From assembly GCF_019891175.1 (NCBI RefSeq), contig NZ_CP072600.1, forward strand, positions 1,612,001 through 1,676,000: 64,000 bases of DNA, in the 5' to 3' direction. Positions 46,697 to 57,655 of the stretch are shown here, in pieces (the first letter of the stretch is position 1; each line of letters begins with the position of its first letter). Source of the DNA: Leptothermofonsia sichuanensis E412. Lineage in GTDB: Bacteria; Cyanobacteriota; Cyanobacteriia; Leptolyngbyales; Leptolyngbyaceae. The notes below the pieces were generated by a model. It was not told the origin of the DNA. It was given only the letters and a program-made list of their open reading frames with translations, and searched no databases. The translations under genes were made by a program, and so were the position numbers.

Positions 46697-47500
<804 letters not shown>

Positions 47501-47736: not shown

Positions 47737-48444
47737 TTATCCCATGCCCTGCAATGAAGTACCCAGAAAAATAACTCCAATTACACTGACGCCGTAGCCA
47801 AAATAACGGAAGAAGTCAGCCGCCCGACCGGGAGATTGCTGGAAACCCTGGCGCCCCAACCAGAATGCTAAAAATGCGATCGCGTACTGAATGACTGTAA
47901 AACCAGTCAGATAGGCAACTAACGGCACCATTTCGGCACCCACAATCGCCTCACCGTAGGCATAGCCGTGAAACAACCCGGCGAGGGCAGCAAGCCCTGC
48001 CAGCAACGGAAAACTCAGTTGTTGACCCAGAGCCAGCAAAACCCCCAGCGCAATCACCGATACGGCAATAGCCATTTCCGTCAGGGGCAGGTTGACTTCC
48101 ATTACATGCAACCCGGTTCCCAGCATGGCTGCCACGACAAAGAATAAAGGCAGCCAGGTTCCCCTGACCTGGCGGGCCGAGAGCAGCCCGATCGCGACGA
48201 CAAAGGCCAGGTGGTCTAATCCAATCACAGGGTGGGCTAAACCGGATAAGAAACCTTCCCAAAAACTGGTTGGAGTTCTGCCACCTGTGGCGTGGTGAGC
48301 TACCGCCGGATAAACAATGCCACACCAGCCAAGTCCGACCAGACCTGAGATCTGCACCCAGCCATTTATGCCAGACTTCACCGATGGTTGCGCCGGGACG
48401 CCTGATTTATTGAATAATTTCTTCAACGATACATTAACCATCAT
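47737..48444 (-). CDS. hupE: HupE/UreJ family metal permease, probable cobalt importer
   Basis: A 235-residue inner-membrane protein with six to seven segments. The HupE signature is present: GLAHPVIGLDHLAFVVAIGL (~68-87; HP..G.DH) and LFHGYAYGEAIVGAE (~155-170). An N-terminal cytoplasmic or linker part (~1-28) precedes the first segment. HupE proteins import Ni2+ or Co2+. The cobalamin riboswitch in front of this gene (48470-48650) points to cobalt for B12. Start: ATG 48444, with a second ATG one codon later. Confidence 0.88.
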   Translation of the reverse strand: MMVNVSLKKLFNKSGVPAQPSVKSGINGWVQISGLVGLGWCGIVYPAVAHHATGGRTPTSFWEGFLSGLAHPVIGLDHLAFVVAIGLLSARQVRGTWLPLFFVVAAMLGTGLHVMEVNLPLTEMAIAVSVIALGVLLALGQQLSFPLLAGLAALAGLFHGYAYGEAIVGAEMVPLVAYLTGFTVIQYAIAFLAFWLGRQGFQQSPGRAADFFRYFGYGVSVIGVIFLGTSLQGMG

Positions 48445-48790: not shown

Positions 48791-49732
48791 TCAGTAACGC
48801 CCAGGCTTGAAGGACCGAAAGGGAAGGGGAATGCCAAGACTGCGAAAGTAAAGGGTGCCAATTGATAGGATAAATAGTCCGTAGGCGATCGCCTGCACCA
48901 GAAACAGGCGTTGGGTATAACCAAACAAGGCATTCAACAGAACACCAGGGAAGCGGTCATCCGGCAGAACGCGAGATAAATCCCAGACTTTTGGACCCAG
49001 AATGCAGGAAGGATTTTTGACAAACCGTTCGTAGAAAATACAAAGCCCCTCCGATTTGCGATCCATCCCGGCAAGGCTGGCAACAGCCGTATCAAAGTGC
49101 CCCAGTGCCATCACAACCAGTCCCGCCACAATCAACAGGAGCAGTACCCCCATTGCCATAAAAAATAGCCGCAGGTTGATTCGAACTCCCCATTTGAATA
49201 GCAGGATCCCGATTGCCACCGCAGTTCCCATCCCCATAACCGCTCCCAGGGCTGGCACCCAGCCCTGTTGAAATTTGGCAACTACGAATAGCACTGTCTC
49301 AAAGCCCTCACGCAGGACTGCAACCAGAATTAATCCAAAAATTGCCCAACCTGCGCTTGACTCCTGCTGCAAAGCCGCGGTTACTGAATCTTCCACCTGC
49401 CCTTTCATCAACTTTGCCTGCTGGGTCATCCAGAGCAGCATCCAACTTAACATTGCGATCGCCAGTACACTGAATATTCCTTCCAGCAAAGGTTCAATCA
49501 CAGGCGCATACTTCTGATTGGCAGTTCCCAGACTGAGGATGATCTGGGTGAACAGCACCCCTACCAGAGCACTGAGTGCAATGCCCACCCCAATGCCAGC
49601 GTAAACCCAGGGATTGAATCGACTTTTACCTGCCTTTTTCAGGTAAGCGAGCACGATGCCCACAACAAGAGTCGCTTCCACGCCTTCCCGCAGGGTAATG
49701 ACAAACGTAGGAATGGCAGAGCTAAAATCCAT
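48791..49732 (-). CDS. FTR1-family iron permease
   Basis: A 313-residue inner-membrane iron permease of the FTR1/EfeU family, with about seven segments. Both REGxE motifs are present: FVITLREGVEATLVVGIVLA (~10-29) and LVAVLREGFETVLFVVAKF (~135-153). In this family Fe(III) produced by a ferroxidase is passed through these motifs. It lies 3 nt downstream of the HHH lipoprotein gene (same operon), and a multicopper oxidase gene is upstream. It is slightly longer than EfeU because of an insert at ~225-255 (ERFVKNPSCILGPKVWDL). Confidence 0.9.
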   Translation of the reverse strand: MDFSSAIPTFVITLREGVEATLVVGIVLAYLKKAGKSRFNPWVYAGIGVGIALSALVGVLFTQIILSLGTANQKYAPVIEPLLEGIFSVLAIAMLSWMLLWMTQQAKLMKGQVEDSVTAALQQESSAGWAIFGLILVAVLREGFETVLFVVAKFQQGWVPALGAVMGMGTAVAIGILLFKWGVRINLRLFFMAMGVLLLLIVAGLVVMALGHFDTAVASLAGMDRKSEGLCIFYERFVKNPSCILGPKVWDLSRVLPDDRFPGVLLNALFGYTQRLFLVQAIAYGLFILSIGTLYFRSLGIPLPFRSFKPGRY

Positions 49733-49735
49733 AAT

Positions 49736-50749
49736 TCAGGCAGCCTTGATTATTTTCTGACTGCTTAATTCAATTAATTTCACCCTTTGCGCCACATCGT
49801 CAGACGACAGGATGGGAGCCTTGGGAGGTTCAACGGAGGGCCAAACCTGCAGCAGTTTTGTCAGATCGGTTTGAATCGCTGTATTAGCCTCTGGATTGTC
49901 TTTTCCAACCTGGGAGGACACACGTTTGTACAGATCCGCTGCATAGATTACGAACCCACGAGAATCCTGGTATTCAATCACTTGAGCAATTTTTCCGTCA
50001 GCAATGGATGCGGTGTACTCGGCGGTTGCTGTATCTAGCAATCCATTCATGACCTGGAGGACAAAACCAGGAGAGTTACGCTGGGTTGCAGGAATCCCAG
50101 CGATCGCCCCATCTACCGCTTGCATCGATGCCTGGAAATCCGTCTTGACCTTTGCCATGTCTTTAGCACCGGCTTTTACCAGATCTTGCAGCGCTATCAA
50201 CTCATACTTAAAGTCCTTGACATTGCGTTCCCGAAATTGCTCTTCCACATCTGCATAGATTTCTTCGACAGGATGCCCAATGTGCGGTTCAGCCTGATCC
50301 GGTTTTCCCAGTTCCAGCAATTCCCCAGCGACCAGCAGGTGTCCCTTCATTAACCCCAGCTTGGTCATGTAATCGACATCTTTCGCCTCACCAGTCAGAA
50401 CAACATCCTCAATGGTGACCAGGTCTCTGATCTGATCGTATTGTTCTTGCGTTATGACATTTTTGCTAACCAGTTCCTCTGTCTTACCGTAGGGACGGCT
50501 TGCCTGAATTTTGTGGGACAGTGCGGGAACCCCCAACTTTGCCTCCAGCTTATCCAATTCCGACAGAATCGCCGTGTTGATATTGATTTGCCTGCCACCG
50601 TGAACCGAATGCTCTCTAGAAGCACTTTGATTGGGAGGCGAACTGGTGGGCGGGGACGAAGTGGGGGAAGTCTGGTGACTGCAAGAAACCGCGATCATCA
50701 GAAACACCATCGCCAAAAACAAACCCAGAAATCGAATAATGGATTTCAT
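49736..50749 (-). CDS. Lipoprotein with helix-hairpin-helix domain, FTR1 operon
   Basis: A 337-residue lipoprotein: hydrophobic leader and lipobox ending in Cys23 (MIAVSCSHQ), then a Ser/Pro/His-rich linker (~24-52). A helix-hairpin-helix-like domain follows at ~53-110 (INTAILSELDKLEAKLGVPA, ASRPYGKTEELVSKNVITQE), then a helical domain (~125-337) with MKGHLLVAGELLELGKPDQA and EPHIGHPVEEIY. The helical part may be the metal-handling partner that replaces EfeO/imelysin in this operon: His and Glu are abundant there. Coupled by 3 nt to FTR1. The HHH fold normally binds DNA, so its presence on an exported lipoprotein is odd. Function unproven. Confidence 0.75.
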   Translation of the reverse strand: MKSIIRFLGLFLAMVFLMIAVSCSHQTSPTSSPPTSSPPNQSASREHSVHGGRQININTAILSELDKLEAKLGVPALSHKIQASRPYGKTEELVSKNVITQEQYDQIRDLVTIEDVVLTGEAKDVDYMTKLGLMKGHLLVAGELLELGKPDQAEPHIGHPVEEIYADVEEQFRERNVKDFKYELIALQDLVKAGAKDMAKVKTDFQASMQAVDGAIAGIPATQRNSPGFVLQVMNGLLDTATAEYTASIADGKIAQVIEYQDSRGFVIYAADLYKRVSSQVGKDNPEANTAIQTDLTKLLQVWPSVEPPKAPILSSDDVAQRVKLIELSSQKIIKAA

Positions 50750-50964
50750 ATCAATCGATTCTCTTACCTGAAACGTCTCTTACCTGGAAACGGTTAACAA
50801 CAATGGCTTAAGTGGTCACGTCTTAAGCTGCCAGAAGTGCATGATTTAATGACAAAGTTAATATCAGGTCATTTTAATGCTAAATATTCTCATTAAATCT
50901 GAAGATTATTCTGACGGCTTGTTGCGTCGCTGTCAACAGCTAATTGCATTTACCTGGAAACTGT

Positions 50965-51975
50965 CTATGCAGTATTATTCACCACTTCAAACAGACCCAT
51001 GCAGCCCGCTTCCGCTACGTCGTCCTGGTGTGGATGAAACATGTATTTGCCCGGATAGCGGTAGGAAAATTCCAGGATATGGCGCTCTGCTGTTCCCATT
51101 GTGATCACATCAGTTTCTGCTTGAGGTTGCAGGGTGTGTCCTGTGGGATAAATCTGAAACAAGTTAGCGTGCAAATGAAAAGTCACCGCCGGATCAAACT
51201 CAATCATGTTCAGCACGTAGAGTCGGATCAACTGATCTTGCTGAATGGGGATAGGATGCGTCATGTAGTAGTCAGGTAGCCCATTGAAGGCATAGAGTTC
51301 ATTTTTCCGATCATCATTGACATCGTATCCCGCCATGATCAGAACCATTTCATCCGCCGGAGGACGCGGTTTCGGTGGGTCAATAATAAACATGCCGTAT
51401 AAACCTTTGCCAATATGACGGGTTACAGGAGCGACATGGCAATGGTATAGGTGCACGCCGTAGGGTTCTGCATCAAACTCATAAATAAAAACACTCCCGT
51501 TGCGAATGGGTTTGACCCCATCCATTTCAGATCGATGGATGCCGTGAAAGTGGAGGGAGTGGGAGTGTCCAGCTTTGTTGTAGAAGATCACCCGAATGCG
51601 ATCGCCCTCGGTTGCCCGAAACGTTGGTCCTGGCACCCGTCCGTTTAAGTTCCAGGTGATAAACGTTGTCGCTCTGTTCAGGCGAATCGGGGAAGTTTGT
51701 GCTTCTACACGAAATTCCCGCACTGTACGCCCCTTTTCCTGCGTCACCGCGCCGTAGTCAAACTCGCGCAGGAAAGTCAGGGGTGTAAATTCCTGTGCTT
51801 GAGCAGATGCCGTTTCAGGCAGAGCAGGAACTTTAACCCGTGGAGCATAATGCCGCTGGCGTATGGATTCCATCGCGATCGCTCCGCCCATCAACCCGGT
51901 GACGACCAGACCCGCTTTCAATAATTGGCGTCGATTCCAGAACTCAGCCTTCTCCAACCCATGATGGTCTGGCAT
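50965..51975 (-). CDS. Two-domain multicopper oxidase, probable ferroxidase
   Basis: A 336-residue exported enzyme. NRRQLLKAGLVVTGLMGG (~14-31) is a twin-arginine-type signal. Copper ligands are visible: HSLHFHGIH (~140), HLYHCHVAPVTRH (~185), HLHANLFQ (~270) and FHPHQDDVAEAGCMGLF (~315). This pattern fits the small two-cupredoxin laccase-like enzymes, which trimerise. The gene precedes the lipoprotein-FTR1 pair on the same strand after 215 nt, so oxidation of Fe(II) for FTR1 is the likely role. I start at ATG 51975: the frame is open to a GTG at 51990. Confidence 0.85.
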   Translation of the reverse strand: MPDHHGLEKAEFWNRRQLLKAGLVVTGLMGGAIAMESIRQRHYAPRVKVPALPETASAQAQEFTPLTFLREFDYGAVTQEKGRTVREFRVEAQTSPIRLNRATTFITWNLNGRVPGPTFRATEGDRIRVIFYNKAGHSHSLHFHGIHRSEMDGVKPIRNGSVFIYEFDAEPYGVHLYHCHVAPVTRHIGKGLYGMFIIDPPKPRPPADEMVLIMAGYDVNDDRKNELYAFNGLPDYYMTHPIPIQQDQLIRLYVLNMIEFDPAVTFHLHANLFQIYPTGHTLQPQAETDVITMGTAERHILEFSYRYPGKYMFHPHQDDVAEAGCMGLFEVVNNTA

Positions 51976-52457
51976 GGCGCAGACAAACACCCCCTCCCCT
52001 TATCAAAAATCAATCTCAAAAGAATCTACCGAATAGCAGTGTAGTGAGTGGTAGAATTATTGTCAAATATTCTCAATTATTTACGACGGATGTTATCCAG
52101 GAATCAGGATTTTGCACCCTGAAACCCTGGGTTTTTCCGGTTGATTTAATCCACGATTCTAAGGTGACGGCAGGGCTGACTCCAGGTATGAACTATGCTG
52201 TGCTGCTTCTGTTACAGCGTCCTGAAGAACTTTCTGCTTCCTTTCTGTCCGAAGCCGGGTGGGGGGATAGCTCACGATAGCTTTTGGCTTTACTGTTTTA
52301 GTCTGATAGACTTAAACTTGAACGAGAATGATTATGATTCCCAGAATCAAGTGGGAATCTGTCATGGTCTGGAGAAGTTCCATTGACCCGGAAGCCACTG
52401 TATCCGGTCTGCATTCTGTGTTTGTCTGGTGTGTCTTTGTGTGAGGATAAGCGATCA
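51976..52457. other. Divergent control region of the iron block
   Basis: 482 bp between the leftward oxidase and the rightward porin gene, without a convincing gene. It holds AAATATTCTCAATTATT at 52065-52081, whose core AAATATTCTCA recurs at 50882-50892 upstream of the lipoprotein gene, and a partial family-D repeat (52094-52165). Both promoters should be here. Confidence 0.45.
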
Positions 52458-54134
52458 ATGAAGAGTGGAATTTTGAAGTGTTTTCTATGCAGCCCGATGG
52501 TTCTGGGAATGGTCGCCGTTTCTGCCACCGCCCAGCCATTGCCACTCACCGCTACTGACCCGTTAACGGTTGCCCCCCAGGGACGCAACCGTGGGATTGG
52601 CGGTCGAGTTCTGCCGGTGTCCCAATTGGAGTCTGCTCCCCTGGGCTATCGCTCCCCAACTGTCATGGGGCAGGTCACATCAGTTTCCCAACTGTCCGAT
52701 GTGCGCCCAACAGATTGGGCGTTTCAGGCGTTGCAATCCCTGGTCGAACGTTACGGCTGCATTGTGGGGTATCCTGATCGCACCTATCGGGGTAATCAGG
52801 CCATGACCCGCTATGAGTTTGCTGCCGGTCTGAATGCCTGTATGGATCGAATCAATGAGTTAATTGCCGCAGGCACCGCTGACCTGGTCAGAAAAGAAGA
52901 TCTGGCAGTGCTGCAACGGCTTCAGGAGGAATTCGCCGCGGAACTGGCAGTGCTTCGGGGTCGAGTTGATGCCTTGGAAGCCCGCACCGCCACCCTGGAG
53001 AAGCAGCAGTTTTCCACCACGACCAAACTGAACGGTGAAGTCATTTTTGCCCTAGCAGGCATTGCCACTGGACAGAATGCTGCGGGGGCAAGAATTGATC
53101 GGATTCCAGTCCTGGGCAATCGCGTCCGCCTGAATTTCGACACCAGTTTTACTGGCAGAGATTTGCTCAGAACCCGACTTCAAGCCGGTAACTTAGATTT
53201 GTTTGGACCTGTCACCCTTACTCCAGAAGGTTCTCTCCGCATCAACGCTGACAGCGGCAATCAGGTTGGCATTGATGCCCTGTTATACCAGTTCCCGATT
53301 GGTGAGAGCACTACGGTTACGGTTGAAGCCAATGCCGGGGCAACGGATGATTTTATTCCTACCATTCACCCCTTCTTTGATGGCGATGGTGGGTTTGGGG
53401 CATTGTCTCATTTTGCCACCCGCAACCCAATCTACTATTTGTTGGGTGGTTCGGGAATTGGCGTCAGCCATTCCTTCGGCAACATATTTGAACTGGGAGT
53501 TGGCTACCTGGCAGATAACGGCACCGGAGCCGCCAACCTGCCGTTTGCCAAGAATGGTCTGTTTAATGGTCCCTACGGGGCGATCGCCCAACTGACCATC
53601 ACCCCCTCCGAGCGCTTTCAGGTGGGCCTGACCTATATCCACTCCTACAAAACCGACTTTTCTACCGCCGGCGAGACCGGGAGTAATCAGGCAAACTTTG
53701 TCAACTTCACAGGTGGGTTGCCCTTCTCTACCAATGCCTATGGGATAGGTGCCTCCTTCCGGATTACCCCTGGAATTGTGCTCAATGGTTCCGCTGGCTA
53801 TACCAAAGCGCGATCGCTGGCAAGTGGACTCAGAGGGGACGCCAACATCTGGAACTGGATGGTCGGACTTGCCTTTCCTGACTTTGGTAAGAAGGGCAGT
53901 GTGGCTGGCATTCTGGTAGGGATGGAACCCAAAGTCACCAATGTGCGTGGTAACCTGAATGCTGCCCTATCGGAAGACCTGGATACTTCTCTGCATGTGG
54001 AGGCGTTCTATCAGTTCCAACTGACTGATAACATCGCCATCACTCCTGGGCTGATCTGGTTGACCGCTCCCGACCACAATCGTAACAACAACGATATCTT
54101 GATGGGAGTGATACGGACAACGTTTACGTTCTAG
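52458..54134 (+). CDS. SLH/OprB-type outer membrane porin, iron-uptake porin candidate
   Basis: A 558-residue outer membrane protein. Signal peptide ~1-26 (MKSGILKCFLCSPMVLGMVA, cleavage after SATA). An SLH domain at ~75-130 (LSDVRPTDWAFQALQSLVER, YGCIVGYPDRTYRGNQAMTR) anchors to the peptidoglycan polymer, then a coiled coil (~145-190) leads to an OprB-type beta barrel (~195-558) ending TTFTF with the terminal aromatic. Cyanobacterial porins of this architecture pass ions, and some are reported as iron-uptake porins. The position next to the ferroxidase and permease fits that. Start: ATG 52458 with GAGG about 11 nt upstream. Confidence 0.85.
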   Translation: MKSGILKCFLCSPMVLGMVAVSATAQPLPLTATDPLTVAPQGRNRGIGGRVLPVSQLESAPLGYRSPTVMGQVTSVSQLSDVRPTDWAFQALQSLVERYGCIVGYPDRTYRGNQAMTRYEFAAGLNACMDRINELIAAGTADLVRKEDLAVLQRLQEEFAAELAVLRGRVDALEARTATLEKQQFSTTTKLNGEVIFALAGIATGQNAAGARIDRIPVLGNRVRLNFDTSFTGRDLLRTRLQAGNLDLFGPVTLTPEGSLRINADSGNQVGIDALLYQFPIGESTTVTVEANAGATDDFIPTIHPFFDGDGGFGALSHFATRNPIYYLLGGSGIGVSHSFGNIFELGVGYLADNGTGAANLPFAKNGLFNGPYGAIAQLTITPSERFQVGLTYIHSYKTDFSTAGETGSNQANFVNFTGGLPFSTNAYGIGASFRITPGIVLNGSAGYTKARSLASGLRGDANIWNWMVGLAFPDFGKKGSVAGILVGMEPKVTNVRGNLNAALSEDLDTSLHVEAFYQFQLTDNIAITPGLIWLTAPDHNRNNNDILMGVIRTTFTF

Positions 54135-56590: not shown

Positions 56591-57655
56591 CTAAGTACAG
56601 GACAAAAGTTTGAGATTGTCCAAGAACTCATCTAATTTATGGTCAAGATTAACGAGTAGGTTGTGCAAGTAATCTAAGCCATATCGGAATAGACTCTGGG
56701 CTTTGCGCCCATGGGACTTGAGTTGAATCGTTTTGTGCGCCTGCCGCCACACCCCCGTTCGCATCACCCAACATAACGCCAATGTGAGGAGCGCAAAGAG
56801 CTTGCGGACTCGGTAGTCATCAATAAAATGGGTCGCTTCGAGGCAGAAGCCCCGAGTTTTGAACGCACCGAACAGGGTTTCTAAATTCCACCGCAGGGCG
56901 TAATCTTTGAGGGCTGAATGGGGTGAATGGTTGGTGACCAAAATCAGTAATTCCTGGGTGTCAAGCCGCAGACCAACGACATACACCCAATGTCCCCACA
57001 CTTGACGGCGTTTGCGTAAAATCTTGGTTTCACCCGCTTTGAGATCGGCAAAGAGGACGCGGCCATTCAGGGCTTTGCTGCCATCACTGAGCGTTTCAGT
57101 TTCGCGAATCCGCCCCCGAAACGGGATTGGCTCATCTTCGAGCAAATAGCCAATCCACTCCCGCCCAACAAATTCGCGGTCGCTCGTCAGGCACCGCAGG
57201 CGGACATCCTCGCCAAAAATCGTGAAGAATTCGTTGAGCAAATCGATGCGCTCTTGGGTGTTGGAATTGCCGCGGTTGTCCAGCATCAGAAACACCACCG
57301 GAAAGGAAATACCCTGATGGCAAATGCCCAGGGTGAGAATGTTGAAAACGCTACCGCCAAAGCTCCATTCGGTGCGGTCTATGGCGAGCACCCAAGGCTG
57401 CGGGATCCCCATCAGGCAGACCACGGCACGGGCAATCGCCGCATAATCGAGATCAAAGTCGCTAAAGAAGCGCTGGAGACGCTTGTAGTTCGACGGAATT
57501 TGGGCGGAACCACAAAAGCTAGCAGCCAATTCGCTCAGATTCACCGTACGGGTTCGTAGCAGGGCGATCAGAAATTGAGCCACAAATGCCAGCCGCGCAC
57601 CATGCCAACCGAGGAGGGGCTGCAAAACTTGGCGAAATTCGGTAATCTGTTGCAT
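56591..57655 (-). CDS. IS4-family transposase, intact
   Basis: 354 residues with the DDE residues in order: VLAIDRTEWSFGG (D1), LTSDREFVG (D2) and YALRWNLETLFGAFK, an exact Y-x2-R-x3-E-x6-K signature of the IS4 family. No frame damage. Its TAG stop is the reverse complement of CTA, the first three bases of the terminal inverted repeat, so the coding region uses the element to its last base. Confidence 0.9.
   Translation of the reverse strand: MQQITEFRQVLQPLLGWHGARLAFVAQFLIALLRTRTVNLSELAASFCGSAQIPSNYKRLQRFFSDFDLDYAAIARAVVCLMGIPQPWVLAIDRTEWSFGGSVFNILTLGICHQGISFPVVFLMLDNRGNSNTQERIDLLNEFFTIFGEDVRLRCLTSDREFVGREWIGYLLEDEPIPFRGRIRETETLSDGSKALNGRVLFADLKAGETKILRKRRQVWGHWVYVVGLRLDTQELLILVTNHSPHSALKDYALRWNLETLFGAFKTRGFCLEATHFIDDYRVRKLFALLTLALCWVMRTGVWRQAHKTIQLKSHGRKAQSLFRYGLDYLHNLLVNLDHKLDEFLDNLKLLSCT

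What the first reader, a model, noticed from the sequence alone, without database searches (positions are those of the whole stretch)
48791..54134. Iron uptake module: porin, two-domain multicopper oxidase, HHH lipoprotein and FTR1
The genes would move iron across the outer membrane (OprB/SLH porin), oxidise it (laccase-like enzyme with Tat-type signal) and pass it through FTR1, with a lipoprotein coupled by 3 nt to FTR1. The lipoprotein has a helix-hairpin-helix-like domain plus a helical, His/Glu-rich domain in place of the EfeO cupredoxin/imelysin. This appears to be a distinct version of EfeUOB/FTR1 systems.
Basis: partly seen in the sequence, partly recalled or inferred. Interest (0 to 1): 0.65.

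Follow-up and report, generated by a model that had tools for sequence, protein, structure and literature searches.

The report
Cyanobacterial copper-oxidase plus lipoprotein iron system
Many cyanobacteria carry a conserved pair of genes, a copper enzyme that probably oxidises iron and a helical lipoprotein that probably carries it, joined in this genome to the iron permease FTR1; it looks like a separate cyanobacterial solution to the job that the EfeUOB and Fet3-Ftr1 systems do elsewhere.

Summary
The genes are real and correctly placed: FTR1, a lipoprotein 3 nt upstream of it, a Tat-type two-domain multicopper oxidase (MCO), and a divergent iron-uptake porin. The iron reading is well supported by context but has no expression or biochemical proof.

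The lipoprotein's constant partner is the MCO: among 386 cyanobacterial genomes both occur in 65, the lipoprotein alone in 4, the MCO alone in 3. FTR1 is optional. Lipoproteins with the helix-hairpin-helix (HHH) domain sit beside FTR1 (46 of 47); those without never do (0 of 20). The porin neighbours about 10% of loci.

The helical core (residues 120-336) matches no Pfam or NCBIfam family above cut-off and shows no profile similarity to imelysin/EfeO (3% probability). Its confident model is two four-helix bundles whose best Foldseek matches are EfeM, EfeO and Algp7, too weakly to settle kinship. Conserved His, Glu and Asp form a candidate metal site. A palindrome, AATTATTGaCAATAATT, lies upstream of most MCO orthologues.

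Most likely: the MCO oxidises Fe(II), the lipoprotein passes Fe(III) to FTR1, and HHH docks it there; all three steps are inferred. New variant of a known kind.

The parts
48791..49732 (-). FTR1-family iron permease, 313 aa, two RE-G-x-E motifs (residues 15-19 and 141-145)
   Evidence: PF03239 E 9.4e-56; TIGR00145 and EfeU NF041756 match below their cut-offs; motifs invariant among 96 linked FTR1
49736..50749 (-). Lipoprotein, 337 aa, ends 3 nt before FTR1; lipobox-like LMIAVSC (Cys 23)
   Evidence: orthologues in 69 of 386 cyanobacterial genomes
50414..50593 (-). HHH domain of the lipoprotein, residues 53-112, degenerate (ComEA/PsbU-like)
   Evidence: HHH_3 E 8.7e-6, best member 1.7e-7, 24 of 24 HHH-form members; model matches ComEA-related 2duy Z 9.5, rmsd 2.5 over 63 residues and PsbU 4yuu
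49742..50392 (-). Helical core of the lipoprotein, residues 120-336, two four-helix bundles; candidate metal ligands H137, H156, H159, E163, E244, E259, D262
   Evidence: model mean pLDDT 96.9, pTM 0.93; conservation 92-96% across 24 diverse sequences (one search prints numbers one too low)
50965..51990 (-). Two-domain multicopper oxidase with Tat-like signal; type 1 copper site in domain 1 (Cys184, His192, axial position Leu197), four HxH motifs for the trinuclear site
   Evidence: PF07732, PF07731; nearest solved structures 3gdc E 4e-85 and 7rab; ligands invariant in 99 orthologues
52055..52081 (-). Operator-like element, two overlapping copies of a palindrome related to AATTATTGaCAATAATT, about 65-90 nt before the MCO start
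   Evidence: 15/17 match in the window; 72 of 96 MCO orthologues score 14/17 or better against about 2 in shuffles or control upstream regions; sites listed
50880..50898 (+). FurA-box-like sequence CTAAATATTCTCATTAAAT in the gap before the lipoprotein gene (14/19 to the Anabaena FurA consensus)
   Evidence: one of three best matches in the 64-kb window; consensus from PMC4005646; weak evidence
52458..54134 (+). SLH/OprB porin of the 'iron uptake porin' family, divergent; occasional neighbour, not part of the conserved unit
   Evidence: NF033921 591 bits; near the lipoprotein in 12 of 117 loci; one of 13 such porins in this genome

Best explanation
A periplasmic iron-oxidation and delivery module. 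The Tat-exported multicopper oxidase oxidises Fe(II), using oxygen, to Fe(III). The membrane-anchored lipoprotein, whose helical core has a conserved His/Glu/Asp cluster, takes the Fe(III) and hands it on. In the branch to which this window belongs the lipoprotein has gained an HHH domain that most likely docks it on FTR1, which carries the iron into the cytoplasm. The divergent porin may let iron across the outer membrane but is not an obligate part. Shown here: gene order, domain content, co-occurrence, the HHH-FTR1 link, intact copper ligands and the conserved upstream palindrome. Inferred: ferroxidase activity, iron binding by the lipoprotein, HHH docking, iron control.
For: MCO and lipoprotein occur together in 65 of 386 genomes, apart in 4 and 3. 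HHH form beside FTR1 in 46 of 47, the exception lying on a short contig; HHH-less form beside FTR1 in 0 of 20. The core tree has one HHH-rich clade with a nested HHH-less member, L111, that has also lost FTR1 linkage. Neighbours in independent branches are iron genes: FTR1 in 94 of 97 HHH loci, ferritin-like protein in 68 of 97, Fe(II)/2OG dioxygenase in 7 of 20 HHH-less loci, iron-uptake porin in 12 of 117. In alphaproteobacteria the core sits next to a di-haem peroxidase-cupredoxin (L168) or an 'Fe2+-dependent dioxygenase' (L169), and cyanobacterial M75 iron proteins have the same kinds of partner: di-haem peroxidase, the dioxygenase, FTR1. The own genome has no M75 and no DyP peroxidase, so EfeO and EfeB are missing. 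MCO ligands are complete and the axial position is Leu in 98 of 99.
Against: No expression, activity or metal-binding data. 49 FTR1 genomes lack the lipoprotein, so FTR1 does not need it. Two-domain MCOs can be laccases or act on other metals. HupE in the window and CbiMNQO-type Co/Ni transporters beside 25 relatives are not iron genes. The palindrome was not tied to a regulator: its other genome sites are mostly not near iron genes.
Confidence: 0.6

Rival explanations
1. The core is a strongly diverged imelysin (M75), so the locus is an EfeUO system in which the MCO has taken the place of the EfeO cupredoxin and EfeB. It works as in the best explanation, but is a member of a known superfamily.
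For: The five best Foldseek matches of the core model are all EfeM, EfeO and Algp7 (E 0.02-0.25, probability 0.87-0.99, while the next rows have 0.18 or less to 0.69). Two four-helix bundles is the imelysin architecture (PMC3143127). Same partner genes as M75 proteins. One member matches PF09375 at E 0.0018, below cut-off.
Against: Profile comparison with 13 cyanobacterial M75 proteins gives 3% probability over 36 columns. No GxHxxE motif; the conserved set is H137, H156xxH159xxxE163 and E259YQD262. TM-scores are only 0.26-0.41 with rmsd near 10 A, and M75 structures are not among the 50 best of the second aligner.
Confidence: 0.35
2. Iron detoxification or balance, not high-affinity uptake: the MCO oxidises excess periplasmic Fe(II), the lipoprotein sequesters it, and the ferritin-like partner stores it.
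For: Ferritin-like gene between lipoprotein and FTR1 in 68 of 97 HHH loci; ten genomes have the lipoprotein but no FTR1 at all, nine of them with the MCO or its fragments nearby or elsewhere.
Against: FTR1 is an importer in every studied case (established knowledge; cFTR1 in Synechocystis is assigned to a reduction/re-oxidation uptake route, as cited in PMC11221513). FurA-box-like sites point to iron-starvation control, though weakly.
Confidence: 0.2
3. A module for another metal (copper, cobalt, nickel or manganese) beside which FTR1 moves the same or another ion.
For: HupE/UreJ downstream here and in L031, CbiMNQO-like ECF transporter beside the MCO in 25 relatives; MCOs of the CopA kind act in copper resistance.
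Against: Co/Ni genes are limited to a few lineages, while iron genes recur in independent ones; no copper export or chaperone gene recurs among the neighbour clusters.
Confidence: 0.15

Closest known systems
EfeUOB / EfeUOM (E. coli, P. syringae; Bacillus YwbLMN)
   Same: FTR1-family permease coupled to a periplasmic iron-binding helical protein; ferroxidase step by a separate enzyme; two-bundle fold most similar to the predicted core.
   Different: No M75 sequence signature, no EfeO cupredoxin fusion, no DyP peroxidase EfeB; instead a two-domain multicopper oxidase and an HHH domain. FTR1 is below the EfeU equivalog cut-off.
Fet3-Ftr1 ferroxidase-permease (yeast) and algal FOX1-FTR1
   Same: Multicopper oxidase plus FTR1; Leu at the axial T1 position, as in Fet3 (recalled).
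   Different: Two-domain, soluble Tat-exported enzyme with no membrane anchor; an added lipoprotein that is more constant than FTR1.
cFTR1 (Slr0964) of Synechocystis PCC 6803
   Same: Cyanobacterial FTR1, assigned to reduction/re-oxidation uptake (cited in PMC11221513, PMC7676907).
   Different: No adjacent MCO or lipoprotein was reported in the texts read; 49 FTR1 genomes here likewise lack the lipoprotein.
IrpA (M75) with di-haem peroxidase in cyanobacteria
   Same: Periplasmic lipoprotein paired with a redox enzyme; same partner families.
   Different: Different sequence family and motif; copper instead of haem enzyme in most cases.
PsbU / ComEA HHH proteins
   Same: HHH fold in an exported protein; PsbU is also cyanobacterial.
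   Different: Here it is fused to a helical core; the GxG hairpins typical of DNA-binding HHH are not evident.
Two-domain MCO with T1 copper in domain 1 (Arthrobacter 3gdc, 7rab)
   Same: Domain order, copper ligands, 271-residue alignment at E 4e-85.
   Different: Invariant Cys330 in the cyanobacterial family where 3gdc has Trp.

Membership tests
FTR1 permease (PF03239) | Match above the curated cut-off and two RE-G-x-E motifs | tested here: met
   189.6 bits against 25.3; REGVE15, REGFE141
EfeUOB system | EfeU equivalog | tested here: not met
   NF041756 200 bits against 255, TIGR00145 233 against 304
EfeUOB system | EfeO with M75 domain | tested here: not met
   No PF09375 in the own genome; none in the lipoprotein; hhalign 3%
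EfeUOB system | EfeB DyP peroxidase | tested here: not met
   No PF04261 in the own genome
Imelysin-like superfamily | GxHxxE or GxxxxE motif with detectable sequence similarity | tested here: not met
   Alignments A1, A3; hhalign
Imelysin-like superfamily | Two four-helix bundles with imelysin arrangement | tested here: inconclusive
   Foldseek top five, E 0.02-0.25, TM up to 0.41; not among the rows of the second aligner
HHH / ComEA-like domain | HHH fold | tested here: met
   2duy Z 9.5 over 63 residues; HHH_3 just below cut-off for the window, above it (E 1.7e-7 best) in relatives
Two-domain multicopper oxidase, T1 in domain 1 (type C in the scheme of PMC13151041) | Two cupredoxin domains, HCH motif in domain 1, none in domain 2 | tested here: met
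   HCH183-185 and HPH319-321; scheme
Ferroxidase | Fe(II) oxidation | not testable with these tools
   Needs enzyme assay; conserved acidic residues and Leu197 are compatible only
Cyanobacterial iron-uptake porin | NF033921 above cut-off | tested here: met
   591 bits against 100
Fur-regulated gene | Binding of Fur/FurA at the promoter | tested here: inconclusive
   Conserved palindrome resembles but does not equal the FurA box; other sites not iron-enriched

The most novel reading that the evidence does not exclude
The helical lipoprotein core is a previously undescribed periplasmic iron-binding family, unrelated to imelysin, that forms an obligate pair with a two-domain copper ferroxidase; the pair can serve different inner-membrane transporters, and acquisition of an HHH domain is what tied one branch to FTR1.
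Probability: 0.3. Interest if true: 0.65.

Novelty: new variant of a known kind. Interest (0 to 1): 0.52.

Why it matters
Iron limits cyanobacteria in many waters, and what re-oxidises iron before FTR1 in cyanobacteria is not settled in the papers read (one says oxygen). This locus offers a specific candidate enzyme and a carrier, present in about a sixth of cyanobacterial genomes sampled, including nitrogen fixers with high iron demand. It also gives a clean natural experiment: the HHH domain and FTR1 linkage come and go together, which makes the docking idea directly testable.

Tried and rejected
Imelysin by sequence: rejected. Porin as a fixed part: rejected, 12 of 117 loci and 13 such porins in the genome. 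HupE as a part: only in L031 besides the window. First k-mer search for a motif picked up coding sequence and was discarded. FurA consensus scan alone: mean best match 13.2 in MCO upstream regions against 12.5 in shuffles and 12.0 in controls, too weak by itself. Search for the regulator by listing other sites of the palindrome: led nowhere; in the own genome 3-mismatch hits equal the control (46 against 52). Second aligner: no M75 structure among its 50 rows, which is not evidence against. Sequence matches to designed helical proteins are composition effects. Algal FEA1 as a relative: no evidence in the paper read. Papers on this exact gene set: none found. I first took the MCO for type B; the scheme in PMC13151041 makes T1 in domain 1 type C.

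Full report
Observation. FTR1 (48791-49732, minus) matches Pfam FTR1 at 9e-56 and has two RE-G-x-E motifs. The lipoprotein (49736-50749, minus) ends 3 nt before the FTR1 start codon. It has a lipobox-like start, an HHH_3 match over residues 53-112, and no family match over the rest. The MCO (50965-51990, minus) has two cupredoxin domains and a twin-arginine motif. The porin (plus strand, probably from ATG 52458) is a strong member of the NCBIfam iron-uptake porin family.

What is conserved. Searches of 386 cyanobacterial genomes give the lipoprotein in 69, the MCO in 68 and FTR1 in 108 (recount). The lipoprotein and MCO coincide in 65 genomes, with 4 and 3 exceptions; lipoprotein and FTR1 coincide in 59 of 69, and 49 FTR1 genomes have no lipoprotein. 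In 117 loci the MCO is a near neighbour in 99, almost always upstream on the same strand. The porin is near in 12 and HupE in very few. So the fixed unit is MCO plus lipoprotein. These counts treat related genomes as separate, so the p-values are not probabilities of independent events.

Two forms of the lipoprotein. Close relatives have HHH plus core; distant ones have the core after a signal peptide and, often, a GGEGGEGG linker. The HHH form lies beside FTR1 in 46 of 47 genomes, and the exception (G048) has its lipoprotein and FTR1 on different contigs; the HHH-less form never does (0 of 20). On a maximum-likelihood tree of the core, the HHH rows need two changes: one well-supported set, and inside it L111, a Nostocales protein that lacks HHH and whose genome keeps FTR1 elsewhere. 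The link therefore rests on about one gain and one concordant loss, kept over a wide range of families, and not on 66 independent cases. The HHH domain model resembles a ComEA-related protein and PsbU, and the hairpin glycines of DNA-binding HHH are not evident, so a docking role outside the membrane is the natural reading (inference).

The core. AlphaFold models are confident (full length pLDDT 88, core alone 96.9) and show eight main helices in two bundles. No Pfam or NCBIfam family matches it above cut-off. Near-invariant polar residues are D124, H137, E143, H156, H159, E163, Y165, E244, Y245, E259, Y260, Q261, D262 and R264 (one search prints numbers one too low). Foldseek ranks EfeM, EfeO and Algp7 first, but TM-scores are 0.26-0.41 and profile comparison with M75 gives 3%. 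I leave kinship open.

The MCO. Its nearest solved relatives are the two-domain enzymes 3gdc and 7rab. HCH183-185 with His192 gives a type 1 site in domain 1; domain 2 has HPH and no such site, which is type C in the scheme of PMC13151041. The axial position is Leu in 98 of 99, Cys330 and Asp323 are invariant; 3gdc has Trp where Cys330 stands. Ligands are complete, so an active oxidase is likely; its substrate is inferred from context.

Iron context in independent branches. Between lipoprotein and FTR1, 68 of 97 HHH loci have a 144-residue ferritin-like gene. In 7 of 20 HHH-less loci a 2OG-Fe(II) oxygenase of the PiuC kind is next door. In Indioceanicola the core is followed by a di-haem peroxidase fused to a cupredoxin, in Roseovarius by an annotated Fe2+-dependent dioxygenase. 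Cyanobacterial M75 proteins have these same kinds of neighbour: di-haem oxidoreductase, dioxygenase, FTR1. The window genome has neither M75 nor DyP peroxidase.

Promoter. Upstream of the MCO, 72 of 96 orthologues carry a near-perfect palindrome AATTATTGaCAATAATT, mostly 70-110 nt before the start; about 2 would be expected from shuffles or other upstream regions. The window has two overlapping imperfect copies at 52055-52081. The element contains TTGACA, so part of its conservation may be a -35 box. It resembles the Anabaena FurA consensus (PMC4005646), but its other genomic sites do not mark an iron regulon. The regulator is unknown.

Mechanism. Best supported: Fe(II) oxidised by the MCO, Fe(III) bound by the lipoprotein and delivered through FTR1, docking by HHH (0.6). 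The rivals are a diverged imelysin doing the same, iron detoxification, or another metal. No published description of this gene set was found in the open-access library; subscription papers were not searched. Verdict: a real, widespread, previously unremarked variant of ferroxidase-permease iron uptake, most of whose biochemistry is inferred.

Noticed in passing
47737-48444 (-): HupE/UreJ-type (nickel/cobalt) permease directly downstream of FTR1, also in L031; many Nostocales relatives have a CbiM-type cobalt transporter beside the MCO instead.
   Followed up: partly
52324-52342: 15/19 match to the E. coli Fur box (GGGAATCATAATCATTCTC) between MCO and porin, the best such match in the window.
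   Followed up: no
L154, L156, L158, L159: Cyanobacterial M75 (IrpA-type) lipoproteins are followed by a di-haem oxidoreductase; L157, L161-L163 have a PiuC-like dioxygenase beside M75.
   Followed up: partly
L137:6836-7282 and like: Small ferritin-like protein inserted between lipoprotein and FTR1 in most heterocystous cyanobacteria, absent from this window.
   Followed up: partly
50965-51990 (-), residue 330: Invariant Cys330 (99 of 99) in domain 2 of the MCO, with no assigned role.
   Followed up: partly
L150:5232-6161: Second FTR1 in the same genome, next to an ABC exporter and a PepSY-type membrane protein, without MCO or lipoprotein.
   Followed up: no
46739-47500 (+), 56591-57655 (-): Transposase-like reading frames flank the region on both sides.
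   Followed up: no
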